Source: Pyrococcus kukulkanii
GTDB taxonomy: Archaea; Methanobacteriota_B; Thermococci; Thermococcales; Thermococcaceae
Reading direction: 5' to 3'
DNA length: 64,000 bases
Assembly: GCF_001577775.1 (NCBI RefSeq)
Contig: NZ_CP010835.1
Span: 620,001-684,000 of the forward strand
Shown piece by piece: positions 27,927 to 35,282 of this stretch (position 1 is the first letter of the stretch; each line of letters opens with the position of its first letter). The notes below the pieces were generated by a model. The model was not told where the DNA came from. It worked only from the letters and a program-made list of their open reading frames with translations, and made no database searches. The position numbers and the translations under genes were made by a program.

Positions 27927-28415
27927 ATGCTAACTGGGAAAGCCTTAATCCCTGTTAAAGTACTCAAACCATTCGGAAACTGGAAAGAGGGAGATATGAT
28001 CCTCCTAGAGGACTGGAAAGCTAAAGAGCTATGGGAGATGGGGATAGTTGAGGTTATTGATGAGGCTGATAAGGTAATTGGCGAGATAGATAGAGTTTTA
28101 ACGGAAGAAAGGAAAAACCCACCCCTCTCTCCGATTCCTGAAGGTCTGTATGATAGAGCTGAATTCTACATCTATTACCTCGAGAAATTTGTACAAGTAA
28201 GTGGAGGGAATATAGACGTTATACAGACTAAGTTGACGAAGCTTCAGAATTTGAAAAAGAAGTACAAGATGCTCAAGGAGATAAGGTTTAAGAAAATCCT
28301 TGAGGCCGTTAGGTTAAGGCCTAATAGCATGGAAATTCTTGCGAGACTTTCTCCAGAGGAGAAGAGAATCTATCTCCAGATTTCTAAGATAAGGAATGAG
28401 TGGATTGGTGAGTAG
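27927..28415 (+). CDS. gins23: GINS complex subunit Gins23
   Basis: Gins23 pairs with Gins51 (Gins15) to form the GINS tetramer of the CMG replicative helicase. The call rests on the beta-domain N-terminus (LIPVKVLKPFGNWKEGDMILLEDWKAKEL in part), the following helical A domain, and the position directly upstream of mcm, an operon known in Pyrococcus. ATG at 27927 is preferred: GGTG lies eight bases upstream and the product starts MLTGKALIPV. A TTG at 27903 in frame abuts its own binding site. Confidence 0.85.
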   Translation: MLTGKALIPVKVLKPFGNWKEGDMILLEDWKAKELWEMGIVEVIDEADKVIGEIDRVLTEERKNPPLSPIPEGLYDRAEFYIYYLEKFVQVSGGNIDVIQTKLTKLQNLKKKYKMLKEIRFKKILEAVRLRPNSMEILARLSPEEKRIYLQISKIRNEWIGE

Positions 28416-28416
28416 G

Positions 28417-31400
28417 ATGGAAAGGGAAGAGATGATAGAGAGGTTCGTCAAGTTCTTTAGGGAGTATACTGAAGAGGAGGAGCCCCTTTACTTGGGTAAA
28501 ATAAAGGATCTGCTTACTGTAACCCCCAAAAGGTCGGTTACAATAAATTGGATGCATTTAAACTCTTATGACCCCGAATTAGCTAATGAAATTCTTGAGC
28601 ATCCGGAAGAAGGTATTGGGGCGGCAGAAGATGCGATCCAGATAGTACTTAGGGAAGAGTTCCTAAGAGAAGATTTACCCAGGATACACGCGAGATTTCA
28701 CAATCTTCCAGAGACATTGCTAGTCAAGGACATTGGAGCGGAGCACATAAACAAACTGATTCAGGTGGAGGGGGTTATAACCAGGGTCACGGAAATAAAA
28801 CCCTTCGTTTCAAAGGCGGTGTTCGTTTGTAAGGACTGCGGTAATGAAATGGTTGTAACTCAGAGGCCCTACGAGGGATTTACGGTCATAAAGAAGTGTG
28901 AAGTTTGTGGAAGTAAGAACGTTACTCTTGATGTTGATAAAAGCTCATTCGTTAACTTTCAGATGTTCAGGATTCAGGATAGGCCAGAAACGCTAAAAGG
29001 TGGCCAGATGCCCAGGTTTATTGATGGAATTCTGTTAGATGATATAGTTGATACGGCAATGCCCGGTGACAGGGTTCTCGTGACTGGAATACTGAGGGTG
29101 GTACAAGAAAGGAGAGAGAAAACACCTGTATTTAGGAAGATTCTTGAGGTTAATCATATTGAGCCAGTAAGCAGGGAAATAGAAGAACTTGAGATAACTC
29201 CAGAAGACGAGCAGAAGATTAGAGAGTTAGCGAAGAGAAAAGATATAGTGGAGGCAATAGTTGATTCTATCGCCCCGGCAATTTACGGTTATAGGGAGGT
29301 AAAGAAGGGTATAGCCTTGGCTTTATTTGGTGGTGTCCCCAGGACTTTGCCCGATGGAACTAGGCTTAGAGGTGACATCCACGTTTTACTGGTGGGTGAT
29401 CCTGGGGTTGCAAAGAGTCAGATTCTAAGATACGTCTCTAATCTTGCTCCAAGGGCTATCTATACCTCTGGAAAGAGCAGTTCGGCTGCGGGTTTAACAG
29501 CAGCTGCCGTAAGGGATGAGTTCACAGGCGGATGGGTTCTTGAAGCTGGAGCCTTAGTTTTGGCAGATGGAGGTTACGCGCTAATAGATGAGCTCGATAA
29601 GATGAGCGACAGGGATAGGAGTGTTATACACGAAGCACTGGAGCAGCAGAGCTACCACCACGACTTTGAGATATTATTGGCAGATGGAAAGAAGGTTAAG
29701 ATTGGAGAGCTTGTTGATTCGCTAATTGAGAAGAATAGGGACAGAGTCATTGTTGGTAAAGATACCGAAATTTTACCCGTTGATGATATCTATGTCTTGG
29801 CATACGATCTTAAAAACAAGAGGATAGTGAAAGTAAAAGCAGATCGTGTAAGTAGGCATAAAGCTCCTGAATACTTTATAAGGCTGAAGTTCTCCAACGG
29901 AAGGGAGATAGTGGTTACTCCTGAGCACCCAATCATGATATGGGAAAATGGGGAGATTAAGGAGAAGCCAGCTGAAGAGGTTAAAGAGGGTGAGATTGCT
30001 GTTGGAGTGCGCGCTTATGAAGGGTTAATTGAGAAAGACGGTGTTGATGAAGTAACAGCAAGACTTCTTGGCTTTTTACTTTCTGAAGGCTTTGCCTATG
30101 CGAATCCTAAAAATGGGTATTATGAAGTTGGATTCACAAATACCGACGAGGAACTAGTAGAGGAGTTTAAAGAGCTTCTGCATAAACTTGGAGTTAAGTT
30201 TAATATTCAGGTAAGAAAAAGAGAAGGAGAAAAGGTCCTTTATACTATCCGTATTATTTCGAAAGAATTCTATCTAGGACTAAAAAGAGAGTTCCCAGAA
30301 ATGTTCCCAGAAAGTGGAAATGAAAGGCCTGCTCGGAGGAAGAGAATTCCTGCAAAAATTATTAGATCACCGTATTACATAAAGATTGCTTTCCTAAATA
30401 CATTTTTCAAGGGAGATGGGTTTGTGGATAAATATAGGGTTGGATTTACAACATCCTCAAAAGCGATGGCAGAAGACCTTCAAGATATTTTATATAGCAT
30501 TGGGATATACTCATACCTATTCGAGGAAGTTAGAGGGAATAAGAGGTATTATAAAGTAATCATTAGTGGAACTAAAGATCTTGAGCGCTTTTCTCAAATT
30601 ATTAAAGATGATAGGAGGATAGAAAAAGTAAAAAGGCTCATAGAAATATCGAAGAAGAGAAGAAATTATAGGGACATAATACCTTCCGACATCCTTATTA
30701 ATATTAGAAGGATATTAAATGAAATTCACATAAATGATGGAGGTCTAACCAATAACATATCTCGCTCTTACAATGCAAATAGAGAGAGAGTTAAAGAATA
30801 CCTTAATAAAATCGAAAAGGAGCTTTATAGGATTAAAAATGCATTAAAGGATGGGGATATCAAGATACTAAGAAGGTTTGTCACAATAAAAGAGTTAGCG
30901 AAGTCTTTTGGTTGGCCTTACTCTACAACATTCTGTAGAGTAAACAGGAGAGAAGAAGAAACAATAAAAGCCCTTTTTGAATTTGCAACTAAGAAAATTG
31001 AGAACATCGAAGAAGAACTTGAAAAAATTAAAGGAATAGTTGATGGCAATATTAGATTTCTCAAAATTGTAAAGGTAGAAAAGATACCCAACAAAGATTG
31101 GAAGTGGGTATATGATGTAACAGTCGAACCTTATCACCTCTTCGTATCCCATGGATTAGTACTTCATAACACGATTAGTATATCAAAAGCAGGTATAACG
31201 GCTACTCTAAATGCCAGAACAACCGTTATAGCGGCCGCAAATCCAAAGCACGGTAGGTTCAATAGGATGAAGCCACTCTTCGAGCAGATAGACCTCCCTC
31301 CCACACTACTAAGCAGGTTCGACTTGATCTTCGTTCTCGTAGATGAACCCGACGAAAAGCTAGATAGCGAGATAGCGAGGCACATCCTAAGGGTAAGGAG

Positions 31401-31980
31401 GGGAGAGAGCGAGGTAGTAACGCCTAAGATCTCTCACGAATTGCTGAGGAAGTACATAGCCTACGCTAAGAAGAACGTTCATCCTGTAATAAGCGAAGAG
31501 GCAATGGAGGAGATCGAGAAGTACTATGTGAGGATGAGGAGGAGCGCTAAGAAGGGTAGTGAGAATGAGGGGATAAGACCAATCCCAATCACCGCGAGGC
31601 AGCTTGAGGCCCTAATAAGGCTGAGTGAGGCCCACGCTAGGATGAGGCTAAGCCCCATAGTCACCAGGGAAGATGCGAGAGAGGCGATTAAGCTGATGGA
31701 GTACACCCTTAGGCAGATAGCTACGGATGAGACTGGCCAGATAGATGTCACGATCCTTGAAGTTGGACAGAGTGCAAGGAAGCTCAGTAAGGTTGAGAGG
31801 ATCCTCGATATAATTGAGAAGCTACAGAAGACGAGCGAGAAGGGTGCCCACATAGATGATATACTCGAAGAGGCAAAGAAGTTTGGAATAGAGAAGCAGG
31901 AGGCAAGAGAGATAATAGAAAAGTTGCTCCAGCAGGGCCAGATATACATGCCTGAAACCGGCTATTACAAGTTGCTCTGA
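28417..31980 (+). CDS. mcm: Replicative helicase MCM, interrupted by an intein
   Basis: MCM unwinds DNA at the archaeal replication fork. The host protein has the N-terminal domain with zinc motif (CKDCG...CEVCG, about 138-171), AAA+ Walker A GDPGVAKSQ, Walker B ALIDELDKM and sensor AAANPKHGRF, followed by the arginine finger LLSRFD and a C-terminal winged helix. Between HEALEQQ and TISISKAG a 507-residue intein is inserted in frame; without it the helicase is about 680 residues. ATG at 28417 is chosen with GGTG six bases upstream; an in-frame ATG at 28396 lies within gins23. Confidence 0.96.
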   Translation: MEREEMIERFVKFFREYTEEEEPLYLGKIKDLLTVTPKRSVTINWMHLNSYDPELANEILEHPEEGIGAAEDAIQIVLREEFLREDLPRIHARFHNLPETLLVKDIGAEHINKLIQVEGVITRVTEIKPFVSKAVFVCKDCGNEMVVTQRPYEGFTVIKKCEVCGSKNVTLDVDKSSFVNFQMFRIQDRPETLKGGQMPRFIDGILLDDIVDTAMPGDRVLVTGILRVVQERREKTPVFRKILEVNHIEPVSREIEELEITPEDEQKIRELAKRKDIVEAIVDSIAPAIYGYREVKKGIALALFGGVPRTLPDGTRLRGDIHVLLVGDPGVAKSQILRYVSNLAPRAIYTSGKSSSAAGLTAAAVRDEFTGGWVLEAGALVLADGGYALIDELDKMSDRDRSVIHEALEQQSYHHDFEILLADGKKVKIGELVDSLIEKNRDRVIVGKDTEILPVDDIYVLAYDLKNKRIVKVKADRVSRHKAPEYFIRLKFSNGREIVVTPEHPIMIWENGEIKEKPAEEVKEGEIAVGVRAYEGLIEKDGVDEVTARLLGFLLSEGFAYANPKNGYYEVGFTNTDEELVEEFKELLHKLGVKFNIQVRKREGEKVLYTIRIISKEFYLGLKREFPEMFPESGNERPARRKRIPAKIIRSPYYIKIAFLNTFFKGDGFVDKYRVGFTTSSKAMAEDLQDILYSIGIYSYLFEEVRGNKRYYKVIISGTKDLERFSQIIKDDRRIEKVKRLIEISKKRRNYRDIIPSDILINIRRILNEIHINDGGLTNNISRSYNANRERVKEYLNKIEKELYRIKNALKDGDIKILRRFVTIKELAKSFGWPYSTTFCRVNRREEETIKALFEFATKKIENIEEELEKIKGIVDGNIRFLKIVKVEKIPNKDWKWVYDVTVEPYHLFVSHGLVLHNTISISKAGITATLNARTTVIAAANPKHGRFNRMKPLFEQIDLPPTLLSRFDLIFVLVDEPDEKLDSEIARHILRVRRGESEVVTPKISHELLRKYIAYAKKNVHPVISEEAMEEIEKYYVRMRRSAKKGSENEGIRPIPITARQLEALIRLSEAHARMRLSPIVTREDAREAIKLMEYTLRQIATDETGQIDVTILEVGQSARKLSKVERILDIIEKLQKTSEKGAHIDDILEEAKKFGIEKQEAREIIEKLLQQGQIYMPETGYYKLL
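29650..31170 (+). mobile_element. LAGLIDADG intein in MCM (507 residues)
   Basis: The intein starts with Ser in SYHHDFEILLADGKKVKI (block A) and ends with VLHN before Thr+1. Block B reads VVTPEHPIMIW and blocks F/G read WVYDVTVEPYHLFVSHGLVL. Two LAGLIDADG-type helices are visible, LLGFLLSEGFA and LNTFFKGDGFVD, so a homing endonuclease is present. Residues near the C-terminal third contain an HTH-like stretch (TIKELAKSFGWPYSTTFCRV). All splicing residues look intact. The insertion point is the conserved EQQ/TIS site used by other archaeal CDC21/MCM inteins. It is more AT-rich than the host gene. Confidence 0.95.
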
Positions 31981-31989
31981 GACCGTCTG

Positions 31990-31999
31990 ATTTATATAC
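31990..31999 (+). promoter_or_regulatory. TATA box of aIF2-beta
   Basis: ATTTATATAC about 40 bases before the ATG, just after the mcm stop, gives the translation factor its own promoter and a leader with GGGGGGTGAG. Confidence 0.6.
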
Positions 32000-32034: not shown

Positions 32035-32457
32035 ATGGAGATTGACTATTACGATTATGAAAAGTTGTTGGAGAAGGCATATGAAGAGCTTCCAGAGAAC
32101 GTTAAGCACCACAAGTCACGTTTCGAGGTTCCTGGGGCCCTCGTAACTATTGAGGGCAACAAGACGATAATTGAGAACTTTAAGGATATAGCAGAAGCCC
32201 TTAACAGGGATCCACAACACCTCCTCAAGTTCCTGCTCAGGGAGATAGCTACCGCCGGAACGCTTGAGGGTAAGAGGGTGATCCTCCAGGGTAGGTTTAC
32301 TCCCTACCTTATAGCAAACAAGCTGAAGAAGTACATCAAGGAGTACGTTATCTGTCCCGTCTGTGGAAGTCCCGATACGAAGATCATCAAGAGAGACAGG
32401 TTTTACTTCCTCAAGTGCGAGGCGTGTGGTGCCGAAACTCCAATTCAGCACCTGTAA
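32035..32457 (+). CDS. Translation initiation factor 2, beta subunit (aIF2-beta)
   Basis: This subunit of the heterotrimeric factor carries initiator tRNA to the ribosome with aIF2-gamma. The 140 residues have the alpha/beta core (residues about 20-100) and a C-terminal zinc ribbon with CPVCGSPDT (about 106) and CEACGAET (about 127). Length and sequence pattern are typical. It follows mcm, as in other Pyrococcus genomes as far as I recall, but has its own TATA box. Confidence 0.95.
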
Positions 32458-32461
32458 CCCA

Positions 32462-32516
32462 GGGATGATGACTTTGCCGAGTGCTGAGGCATGATGAATA
32501 AACAGTCGTCTGACCC
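32462..32516 (+). ncRNA. C/D box sRNA with two 12-nt guides
   Basis: All four boxes are perfect: C ATGATGA (32465-32471), D' CTGA (32484-32487), C' ATGATGA (32491-32497) and D CTGA (32510-32513). The guides between them are both 12 nt, the spacer D'-C' is 3 nt, and GGG/CCC form a terminal stem. The D' guide is complementary to CACUCGGCAAAG, the D guide to ACGACUGUUUAU. By the box-plus-five rule each directs 2'-O-methylation of a C. From memory both targets resemble conserved segments of archaeal 23S rRNA. The C' box coincides with the first two ATG codons of the next gene. Confidence 0.9.
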
Positions 32517-34107
32517 GGCCTTTCTCCTATTCTTTTCTGCGTTTTCAATTAGCCTAGTTATAGCTTTGGTCTCTAAGTTCAAGTCAATCCCAGGCCCTCC
32601 GTACGGAGGAGATCTATACTTCCATACAGGCATTGCGCAGGCGATAATGTTTGGGAATCCTCCGTTTAGGGATCCAACAAGCGTTGGAGAGTATGCATTC
32701 TACCCTTGGCTGTACCACCTTATAGTCGCCTTCCTGGGCAAGATCCTCGGGATATTTTTCGTAGTCACAAAGGTAGTTCCGATCCTTATTTTGACACTCT
32801 CAATGCTCGTTCTTTACCAAATTGCAAGAGAGAACTTCAATCGCAGAGTCGCAATTGTTGCTGTTTTAATACCACTTGCCCTTAAGTTTCCTGAAGCGCA
32901 TCCAAGGGCCCTGCTTTCAATGGTCATGATTCCCCTGTTCTACCTTGCCCTGTTTAGGTTCTCCAGAGATAGGGATGTTAAAAATTCCGTGTTTTTAGGT
33001 GTATCTTGGGGCTTGGCAGGTTTGACGCATGTGCTTGGGACTTTCGGTGCAGGAGCGATTTTATTAACCAAGACAGTGATGGATAAAATAAAGCGGATGA
33101 AGATCAAGTATAACATCGTGGCAATAGCTATTGGGGTTACGATACTCCTCCTCTTTTGGGGCCCTCTATTGTTCGTGTATCATGCAAAAACACCTAACCC
33201 GTATCAGGAGCTAGTAATGAGGCACTTCACGCTTCCCGAGTTTATAGTCTCTTTTCTTACCTTCCCCCTCTCCTTCTCAGGATTAAAAATCTTCCTGGGG
33301 ATGCTGACAATTCCTGGGATTATACTCGGCTTAATTCGGTATAGAGACGTGTTTTTACCCTCACTCTTGGGAATACTGGGAGCGGGAGTTCTGTTCATTG
33401 TGTTAGGTGACAACTTAGTAGCGTACAAGCTGTCCTCATATTATTTTACATTAAATGCCCTCGCAATCCTTGAATCGCTGAACTGGCTCTCTGAGAACTT
33501 GAAGTGGAGCAAAATAATGCCTTTAGCAGTTATTCTCCTTATGGGAACTTCGGCCATAACTGTAGGTGACTATGCAAACTCTCCATGGACAGCCATTGGG
33601 TTTAAAGATCCGTGGTACAATGACCTCAGGTGCTGGATACTTACCAATTCCGACGTAAATATGGTGTTCTTGAGTAGCTATGAGAGCTCATTCTTTCTGT
33701 TTTCCATCTCTGGAAGAAAAACGGTGCTGTTTAGAAGAACTCATGCATCTCCATTCGTGGATTACGATAAAAGAAGCCTCGATATAGCCATTGCACTTGC
33801 GGGCAATGATACCGAAGAATCGCTAAGAATTCTCAAGAAATACAACGTGGCCTATATCTATATTGACAGCTTCACAAAGAGAGATCCAATTTGGGTGCCC
33901 TATAAGTACTCCAGTATCCTCAGGGAAAAAGGAATTGAGTGCAGAGTTGGATATGTCCCGTATGACCCTGCAGACCCTAAGAGCGTGAAGATAAAGGCGT
34001 GCCGAGTTAAGTTTAAAATTAATCCCAAGCTGAAAAGGATGCTAAAGCTTGTATACTCTAACGGAGAAACGAAGATATACAAGCTTATTAATGGACAAGA
34101 CAATTAA
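32491..34107 (+). CDS. Polytopic membrane protein, GT-C-like
   Basis: The protein has a first membrane helix (about 10-28), then an outer loop with GGDLYFHTGIAQAI and DPTSVGEYAFYPWLYH, about a dozen helices in all, and a soluble C-terminal region of about 170 residues. An acidic motif in the first outer loop followed by His-rich turns is typical of GT-C glycosyltransferases, though I cannot place the family. The first ATGs (32491, 32494) are part of the C' box of an sRNA; no other good start precedes the first helix, so they are probably used. Confidence 0.65.
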   Translation: MMNKQSSDPAFLLFFSAFSISLVIALVSKFKSIPGPPYGGDLYFHTGIAQAIMFGNPPFRDPTSVGEYAFYPWLYHLIVAFLGKILGIFFVVTKVVPILILTLSMLVLYQIARENFNRRVAIVAVLIPLALKFPEAHPRALLSMVMIPLFYLALFRFSRDRDVKNSVFLGVSWGLAGLTHVLGTFGAGAILLTKTVMDKIKRMKIKYNIVAIAIGVTILLLFWGPLLFVYHAKTPNPYQELVMRHFTLPEFIVSFLTFPLSFSGLKIFLGMLTIPGIILGLIRYRDVFLPSLLGILGAGVLFIVLGDNLVAYKLSSYYFTLNALAILESLNWLSENLKWSKIMPLAVILLMGTSAITVGDYANSPWTAIGFKDPWYNDLRCWILTNSDVNMVFLSSYESSFFLFSISGRKTVLFRRTHASPFVDYDKRSLDIAIALAGNDTEESLRILKKYNVAYIYIDSFTKRDPIWVPYKYSSILREKGIECRVGYVPYDPADPKSVKIKACRVKFKINPKLKRMLKLVYSNGETKIYKLINGQDN

Positions 34108-34124: not shown

Positions 34125-35282
34125 ATGTACCTGACCAAAGAGGAAGAGCTCGCGCTTTCGGGGGAATACGGTCCCGCAGTTCAGAAGGCCATGGAGATTT
34201 TGGTTGCCCTTGGCGATATCTATAACGCTGACAGGTTAATCCCGATAAAAAGCGCTCAAATAGCTGGAGTTAGCTATAAGAATCTTGGAGAGTACGGAAT
34301 GCAGTTCCTAAGGGACTTCGTCGAGATGGGGGCCAAGGTTTCCGTGTACACAACCCTAAACCCTGCGGGAATAGGGGATGAGGAGTTCACGGAAAAACAG
34401 CAGGAAATCCTTGACTTATATAGGGCAATGGGTGTTGAGATAACTTCTACGTGCACGCCTTATTATGGTCCAAACCTCCCCAAGTTTGGTGATCACCTTG
34501 CTTGGAGCGAAAGCTCGGCGGTAAGTTTCGCCAACTCCGTTTTGGGTGCAAGAACGAACAGAGAAGGCGGTCCTTCAAGCTTAGCCGCCGCGATAGTTGG
34601 GAAGACGCCAAACTACGGCCTCCACTTAGAGGAGAACAGGAGGGCCACCCATCTAATAAAGATTGAGGCTGAAGTAAGGGAGAGAACTGAGTATTCGATC
34701 TTGGGCTATAGGATAGGGGAGATCGTTAAGGATGGCGTGCCCTATATAAAAGGGATAAGGCCAGATGTCGATGACCTAAAGGCAATGGGGGCTAGCATGG
34801 CTGCGAGCGGTAGCGTTGCCCTCTACCATGTTGAAGGCGAGACTCCAGAGTGGAGAACTGCTTTAAACGATGTCGTTGAGGAGATATTAATTGATGAAAA
34901 GGATCTCCAGGAGGTTAAGGAGAGGTTCTCGGCCGAGTGGAGGGAAGTTGATTTTATACTCTTAGGATGCCCACACGCTTCCCTCAAGGAAATCAAAGAG
35001 ATAGCGGAACTGTTGAGGATGAGAAATAGGCCTCTAAAGGTTCCCCTCTTTGTAACCGTTAGCAAGTCGGTGAAAGCATTGGCAGACTACCTTGGCTATA
35101 CGGAGATAATTGAGAGGTACAACGGTAAATTGTTGAGTGATGTTTGCCTTGTCGTGTCTCCAGTGAACGAGTGGTACTCGGGTGTGGCAACCAACAGCGG
35201 AAAGGCGGCGTTCTACTTCAAGTCTTTTGGTCTGAACGTTAGATTAGACGGCCTCGAAAAAATAATTATGGAGGCGCCATGA
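34125..35282 (+). CDS. Phosphomevalonate dehydratase large subunit (aconitase X type)
   Basis: This is the catalytic subunit of the aconitase X family. In most archaea the enzyme turns 5-phosphomevalonate into trans-anhydromevalonate phosphate in the modified mevalonate pathway, using an Fe-S cluster. The 385 residues begin MYLTKEEELALSGEYG and include SVYTTLNPAG, TCTPYYGPN and NSVLGARTNREGGPSS, all characteristic. The small subunit follows with ATGA overlap, as expected for a two-subunit enzyme. Confidence 0.88.
   Translation: MYLTKEEELALSGEYGPAVQKAMEILVALGDIYNADRLIPIKSAQIAGVSYKNLGEYGMQFLRDFVEMGAKVSVYTTLNPAGIGDEEFTEKQQEILDLYRAMGVEITSTCTPYYGPNLPKFGDHLAWSESSAVSFANSVLGARTNREGGPSSLAAAIVGKTPNYGLHLEENRRATHLIKIEAEVRERTEYSILGYRIGEIVKDGVPYIKGIRPDVDDLKAMGASMAASGSVALYHVEGETPEWRTALNDVVEEILIDEKDLQEVKERFSAEWREVDFILLGCPHASLKEIKEIAELLRMRNRPLKVPLFVTVSKSVKALADYLGYTEIIERYNGKLLSDVCLVVSPVNEWYSGVATNSGKAAFYFKSFGLNVRLDGLEKIIMEAP

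What the first reader, a model, noticed from the sequence alone, without database searches (positions are those of the whole stretch)
32462..32516. C/D box sRNA whose C' box is the start codon of a membrane protein gene
Four perfect boxes, two guides of 12 nt and a terminal GGG/CCC stem make this a near-certain C/D sRNA. The C' box ATGATGA is also the tandem ATG start of the downstream gene, and the D guide is inside its coding region. One sequence therefore seems to serve as rRNA guide and as translation start, so snoRNP binding and translation could compete on a shared transcript. Both guides seem to fit conserved 23S rRNA segments (ACUCGGCAAA and CGACUGUUUA, from memory).
Basis: partly seen in the sequence, partly recalled or inferred. 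Interest (0 to 1): 0.72.

Follow-up and report, generated by a model that had tools for sequence, protein, structure and literature searches.

The report
Known sR11 guide RNA overlapping ORF
This is a well-conserved, already catalogued small RNA (sR11) that directs methylation of ribosomal RNA in Pyrococcus; in this genome a membrane-protein reading frame happens to begin inside it, an overlap of a kind already described, and close relatives lack that gene or carry it broken.

Summary
Window 32462-32516 (+) is a canonical archaeal C/D box sRNA with four perfect boxes, two 12-nt guides and a GGG/CCC terminal stem. It scores above threshold for Rfam RF01150 (sR11). Both guides pair perfectly over 10 nt with this genome's own 23S rRNA, at 1827-1836 and 1909-1918 (predicted Cm1830 and Cm1912). 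The C' box ATGATGA is also the only ATG/GTG start ahead of the first hydrophobic segment of a 538-aa PMT_2-type membrane-protein ORF.

The proposed dual function is not supported. In all 8 near-complete Pyrococcus genomes examined the sRNA sits just behind the aIF2-beta gene. The downstream gene is absent in four, a different 24%-identical paralogue in one, broken by nonsense and frameshifts in one, cut off from the C' ATG by a 1-nt deletion in one, and intact only here. The sRNA is therefore the constrained element; the ORF is a lineage-specific neighbour that seems to use an ATG the RNA already had. Such 5' overlaps are published: about 7% of archaeal C/D sRNA genes, with reduced downstream expression and suggested pseudogene formation. 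An ordinary case, worth a small note as a concrete example of that decay.

The parts
31991..31998 (+). TATA box TTTATATA upstream of aIF2-beta, likely promoter of the aIF2-beta/sRNA transcript
   Evidence: 8/8 match; best TATA-like match upstream of the sRNA itself is only 4-5/8; transcription not measured
32035..32457 (+). aIF2-beta (translation initiation factor 2 beta) gene, 140 aa, with strong Shine-Dalgarno
   Evidence: Pfam PF01873 E 2e-40; anti-SD pairing -14.9 kcal/mol
32462..32516 (+). C/D box sRNA, orthologue of Rfam sR11, with GGG/CCC terminal stem
   Evidence: Rfam RF01150 43.4 bits, GA 39; conserved in 8/8 near-complete Pyrococcus genomes
32465..32471 (+). box C ATGATGA
   Evidence: sequence
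32472..32483 (+). D' guide CTTTGCCGAGTG; 10 nt perfect to 23S 1827-1836, predicted Cm1830 (E. coli position 1672)
32484..32487 (+). box D' CTGA; its TGA is the in-frame stop upstream of the ORF
32491..32497 (+). box C' ATGATGA, also tandem ATG start of the downstream ORF
32498..32509 (+). D guide ATAAACAGTCGT; 10 nt perfect to 23S 1909-1918, predicted Cm1912 (E. coli C1774)
32510..32513 (+). box D CTGA
32517..32556 (+). T-rich stretch directly behind the sRNA (38-55% T in all eight Pyrococcus), possible termination region; here it codes the first hydrophobic segment
   Evidence: role inferred
32491..34107 (+). 538-aa membrane-protein ORF (PMT_2 glycosyltransferase type) whose first eight to nine codons lie inside the sRNA
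   Evidence: Pfam PF13231 E 3e-6; broken or absent in relatives
34125..35282 (+). aconitase X gene; in G008 it follows the sRNA directly with no membrane-protein gene between
   Evidence: Pfam PF04412 E 5e-149

Best explanation
The element is the Pyrococcus sR11 C/D box sRNA. It is transcribed as the 3' trailer of the aIF2-beta mRNA, bound by L7Ae, Nop5 and fibrillarin at C/D and C'/D', trimmed to about 55 nt, and guides 2'-O-methylation of two cytidines 82 nt apart in 23S rRNA. A PMT_2-type membrane-protein gene came to lie between the sRNA and the aconitase X gene and uses, if it is translated at all, the tandem ATG that the C' box already offered. This adds about eight residues (MMNKQSSDP) that homologues lack. 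The overlap is an incidental consequence of compact gene order, not a regulatory device. Shown here: sRNA family, targets by complementarity, conserved position behind aIF2-beta, non-conservation of the ORF. Inferred: co-transcription, processing, methylation, and the order of events.
For: Rfam sR11 above threshold. Perfect 10-nt pairing of both guides to the own 23S, each from the second nucleotide before its box; only 35 of 4000 shuffled D' guides and 1 of 4000 shuffled D guides reach 10. Identical targets in 8 genomes. sRNA directly behind aIF2-beta in all 8. TATA box before aIF2-beta and none before the sRNA. The ORF is intact at this locus only here; G007 has a 24%-identical paralogue, G005 and G010 are shifted or broken, G004, G006, G008 and G011 have none. 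Homologues at other loci lack the N-terminal tag. Published frequency of 5' overlaps is 7%, with reduced downstream expression (PMC7994747).
Against: The ORF is intact here, and dN/dS against G005 and G010 is low (0.04/0.30 and 0.06/0.50), so the protein was selected for most of that time. In G007 another paralogue also runs open from the C' ATG, so the overlap may have arisen or been kept more than once. No RNA data could be examined.
Confidence: 0.85

Rival explanations
1. One reading: a shared transcript on which sRNP assembly and ribosome binding at the C' ATG compete, so sRNA production and membrane-protein translation are coupled.
For: C' ATG is the only ATG/GTG start before the first hydrophobic segment and its upstream frame is closed by the D' box TGA. 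G007 has a second intact case. L7Ae binding to a k-turn that flanks a Shine-Dalgarno represses translation in Sulfolobus (PMC5539422).
Against: The frame is broken in the two nearest relatives and absent in four others, while the sRNA is kept. SD pairing is weak (-5.6 vs median -8.3 kcal/mol for ORFs of 150 aa or more) and lies only 1-4 nt from the ATGs.
Confidence: 0.08
2. The membrane-protein ORF is no longer expressed (incipient pseudogene) and only the sRNA works here. This is compatible with the best explanation and differs only on whether the ORF is still used.
For: Broken copies at the same locus in G005 and G010; weak SD; 5' overlaps lower downstream transcription and may lead to pseudogenes (PMC7994747).
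Against: Full-length intact ORF with low dN/dS. The G005 break is one base in a C run and could be a sequencing error.
Confidence: 0.3
3. The motif is a cis-acting k-turn/L7Ae element of the downstream mRNA and not a guide RNA.
For: Such a reading was raised for some 5' snoRNA-like elements in T. kodakarensis (PMC4247193).
Against: Both guides match 23S and are conserved where no downstream gene exists.
Confidence: 0.03

Closest known systems
Rfam RF01150, sR11 (Pyrococcus C/D box sRNA)
   Same: Same boxes and guides over the whole 57-position model; score above the gathering threshold
   Different: D'-C' spacer is 3 nt in this genome and varies from 3 to 5 nt across the genus; no functional difference seen
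5'-overlapping archaeal C/D sRNA genes (Tripp et al. 2017, as reviewed in PMC7994747; 12 snoRNAs in 5' coding regions in T. kodakarensis, PMC4247193)
   Same: Start codon of the downstream ORF lies inside the sRNA
   Different: Here the start coincides with box C'; the review says guide or downstream of box D is commoner
L7Ae k-turn autoregulation (PMC5539422)
   Same: k-turn-type motif next to a start codon
   Different: There a dedicated leader k-turn masks the SD; here a two-guide sRNA with rRNA targets and no conserved downstream gene

Membership tests
archaeal C/D box sRNA | Boxes C, D', C', D in order with guides of about 9-14 nt | tested here: met
archaeal C/D box sRNA | Guide complementary to rRNA or tRNA in register with box D or D' | tested here: met
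   10 nt perfect for both guides, 23S rRNA
archaeal C/D box sRNA | Stable about 50-65 nt RNA bound by L7Ae, Nop5 and fibrillarin | not testable with these tools
   no RNA data available
Rfam RF01150 sR11 | Covariance model score at or above gathering threshold | tested here: met
   43.4 vs 39 bits; the stricter whole-genome search gave 31.8 bits for the same site
Rfam RF01150 sR11 | Orthologous position across Pyrococcus | tested here: met
   behind aIF2-beta in 8/8
5'-overlapping C/D sRNA gene | Start codon of downstream ORF inside the sRNA | tested here: met
   32491
5'-overlapping C/D sRNA gene | Start is actually used by ribosomes | not testable with these tools
   no ribosome profiling
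L7Ae-regulated leader | Conserved association of the k-turn with one downstream gene | tested here: not met
   downstream gene differs, is broken or is absent

The most novel reading that the evidence does not exclude
The C' box start is a selected, recurrent device: PMT_2-type genes settle behind sR11 and use its C' ATG so that sRNP assembly sets the membrane protein's translation (intact cases in this genome and in G007).
Probability: 0.06. Interest if true: 0.6.

Novelty: new member of a known kind. Interest (0 to 1): 0.2.

Why it matters
It gives a clean example of how a conserved non-coding RNA outlives the coding sequence overlapping it: four related genomes show an intact overlap, a shifted frame, a clear pseudogene and a different paralogue at one site. 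It also warns that an ATG inside a C/D box can be either a real start or an accident. It opens no new mechanism.

Tried and rejected
Scoring guide pairing with G-U pairs and mismatches did not separate the real guides from shuffled ones; the longest perfect duplex did. An own promoter for the sRNA was looked for and not found. A cis-only k-turn element was rejected because guides and targets are conserved without the downstream gene. Literature searches for sR11 by name gave nothing useful. Tripp et al. 2017 itself was not read and is cited through PMC7994747.

Full report
Observation. The sequence at 32462-32516 reads GGG-ATGATGA-CTTTGCCGAGTG-CTGA-GGC-ATGATGA-ATAAACAGTCGT-CTGA-CCC, exactly as described. 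It is the only four-box site in the window; 60 simulated windows of the same dinucleotide content contain none. The genome has 27 sites of this type with a D'-C' spacer of 3 or 4 nt, against none for the reversed control pattern, so the motif is specific for real sRNAs.

Identity. Rfam's sR11 model (RF01150) matches 32461-32514 at 43.4 bits, above its gathering score of 39. A stricter whole-genome search scores the same site 31.8 bits and finds clear orthologues (31-43 bits) in the seven other near-complete genomes of the genus. One fragmentary genome (G009, 77% complete) had no strong match.

Targets. In the genome's own 23S rRNA (L052) the D' guide pairs perfectly with ACUCGGCAAA at 1827-1836 and the D guide with CGACUGUUUA at 1909-1918, each once, starting at the second nucleotide before the box. 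Of 4000 shuffled guides, 35 and 1 respectively reach a 10-nt duplex. By the fifth-nucleotide rule (established knowledge of C/D guides) the methylated residues are C1830 and C1912, which align with E. coli 1672 and 1774. All eight Pyrococcus 23S genes have identical target sites. Helix 61 and other domain IV helices are known hotspots of guided methylation (PMC4644070).

Context. The sRNA starts 4 nt after the stop codon of aIF2-beta. In all eight Pyrococcus genomes box C lies within about 17 nt of the end of aIF2-beta. A perfect TATA box (TTTATATA, 31991-31998) precedes aIF2-beta; no comparable box precedes the sRNA in any genome. The 40 nt behind the sRNA are T-rich in all of them. The simplest reading is that sR11 is the 3' trailer of the aIF2-beta transcript, protected by its proteins and trimmed, as proposed for archaeal C/D sRNAs in general (PMC7994747). 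This step is inferred.

The overlapping gene. ATG 32491 opens a 538-aa ORF (PMT_2 domain). An in-frame TGA two codons upstream, inside D', and the lack of another ATG or GTG before the first hydrophobic segment make C' the only likely start. Its SD pairing is weak, -5.6 kcal/mol against a median of -8.3 for ORFs of 150 aa or more in the window and -14.9 for aIF2-beta. In the two nearest relatives, with identical sRNAs, the gene is damaged: in G005 a 1-nt deletion ends the C' frame after 50 codons, and the remaining 509-codon frame has no ATG near its start; in G010 a TAG ends it after 42 codons and two frameshifts follow. G007 has a 24%-identical paralogue, open from the C' ATG and also from box C. 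In G008 aconitase X follows the sRNA directly; G004, G006 and G011 also lack the gene. Homologues about 50% identical at other loci in another genus start about eight residues further in, without the sRNA-encoded tag. Low dN/dS (0.04/0.30 against G005) shows that the protein was selected until recently, so the losses look recent, and the G005 loss could be a sequencing error.

Interpretation. The constrained element is the sRNA. The ORF is a lineage-specific neighbour that uses a pre-existing ATG. Competition between sRNP and ribosome on one transcript is physically possible but is not a relation that evolution has kept here.

Comparison. 5' overlaps occur for about 7% of C/D sRNA genes in six archaea, reduce downstream transcription, and were suggested to lead to pseudogenes (PMC7994747). 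In T. kodakarensis 12 snoRNAs lie in 5' coding regions (PMC4247193). In this genome, among 27 perfect four-box sRNAs, three have a downstream ORF whose first start lies inside the sRNA (L074, L078 which is this one, L098), and four have the upstream stop codon in box C. This is in line with those reports. L074's real start is probably further downstream, after GGAGGTG.

Verdict. Observation confirmed; identity confirmed as sR11; dual-function idea not supported. A new example of a known arrangement, of modest interest.

Noticed in passing
L098 (G000:C1:1942553-1942604): Another C/D sRNA in the same genome has an ATG at the start of its D guide that opens a 229-aa ORF (MVGLADAPVAVLYSGGKDSNYAL..., resembling Dph6-type ATP-binding proteins, from memory); here the start looks genuine, so it is a better case for testing sRNA/translation overlap.
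   Followed up: partly
[quoted passage not shown]
   Followed up: partly
L011, L012, L014, L015, L017 (another genus of the family): An sRNA with the same D' guide overlaps the 3' end of an upstream ORF, with that ORF's TGA stop inside box C'; the D guide differs from Pyrococcus sR11.
   Followed up: partly
L032-L051: The string TGATGANTTTGCCGAGTNCTGA (box C, D' guide, box D') occurs exactly in MAGs labelled Desulfurococcales, Thermoproteota, Heimdallarchaeota, Aenigmatarchaeota and others, so this 23S site seems to be guided widely across archaea.
   Followed up: partly
L067 (G007:C1:791876-793309): A second PMT_2-type gene copy related to the window ORF (48%) appears frameshifted near its 5' end, suggesting frequent decay of this gene family in Pyrococcus.
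   Followed up: no
window 28396-31980: The MCM helicase ORF of 1194 aa appears to contain an intein (long insert ending in ...VSHGLVLHN between helicase blocks).
   Followed up: no
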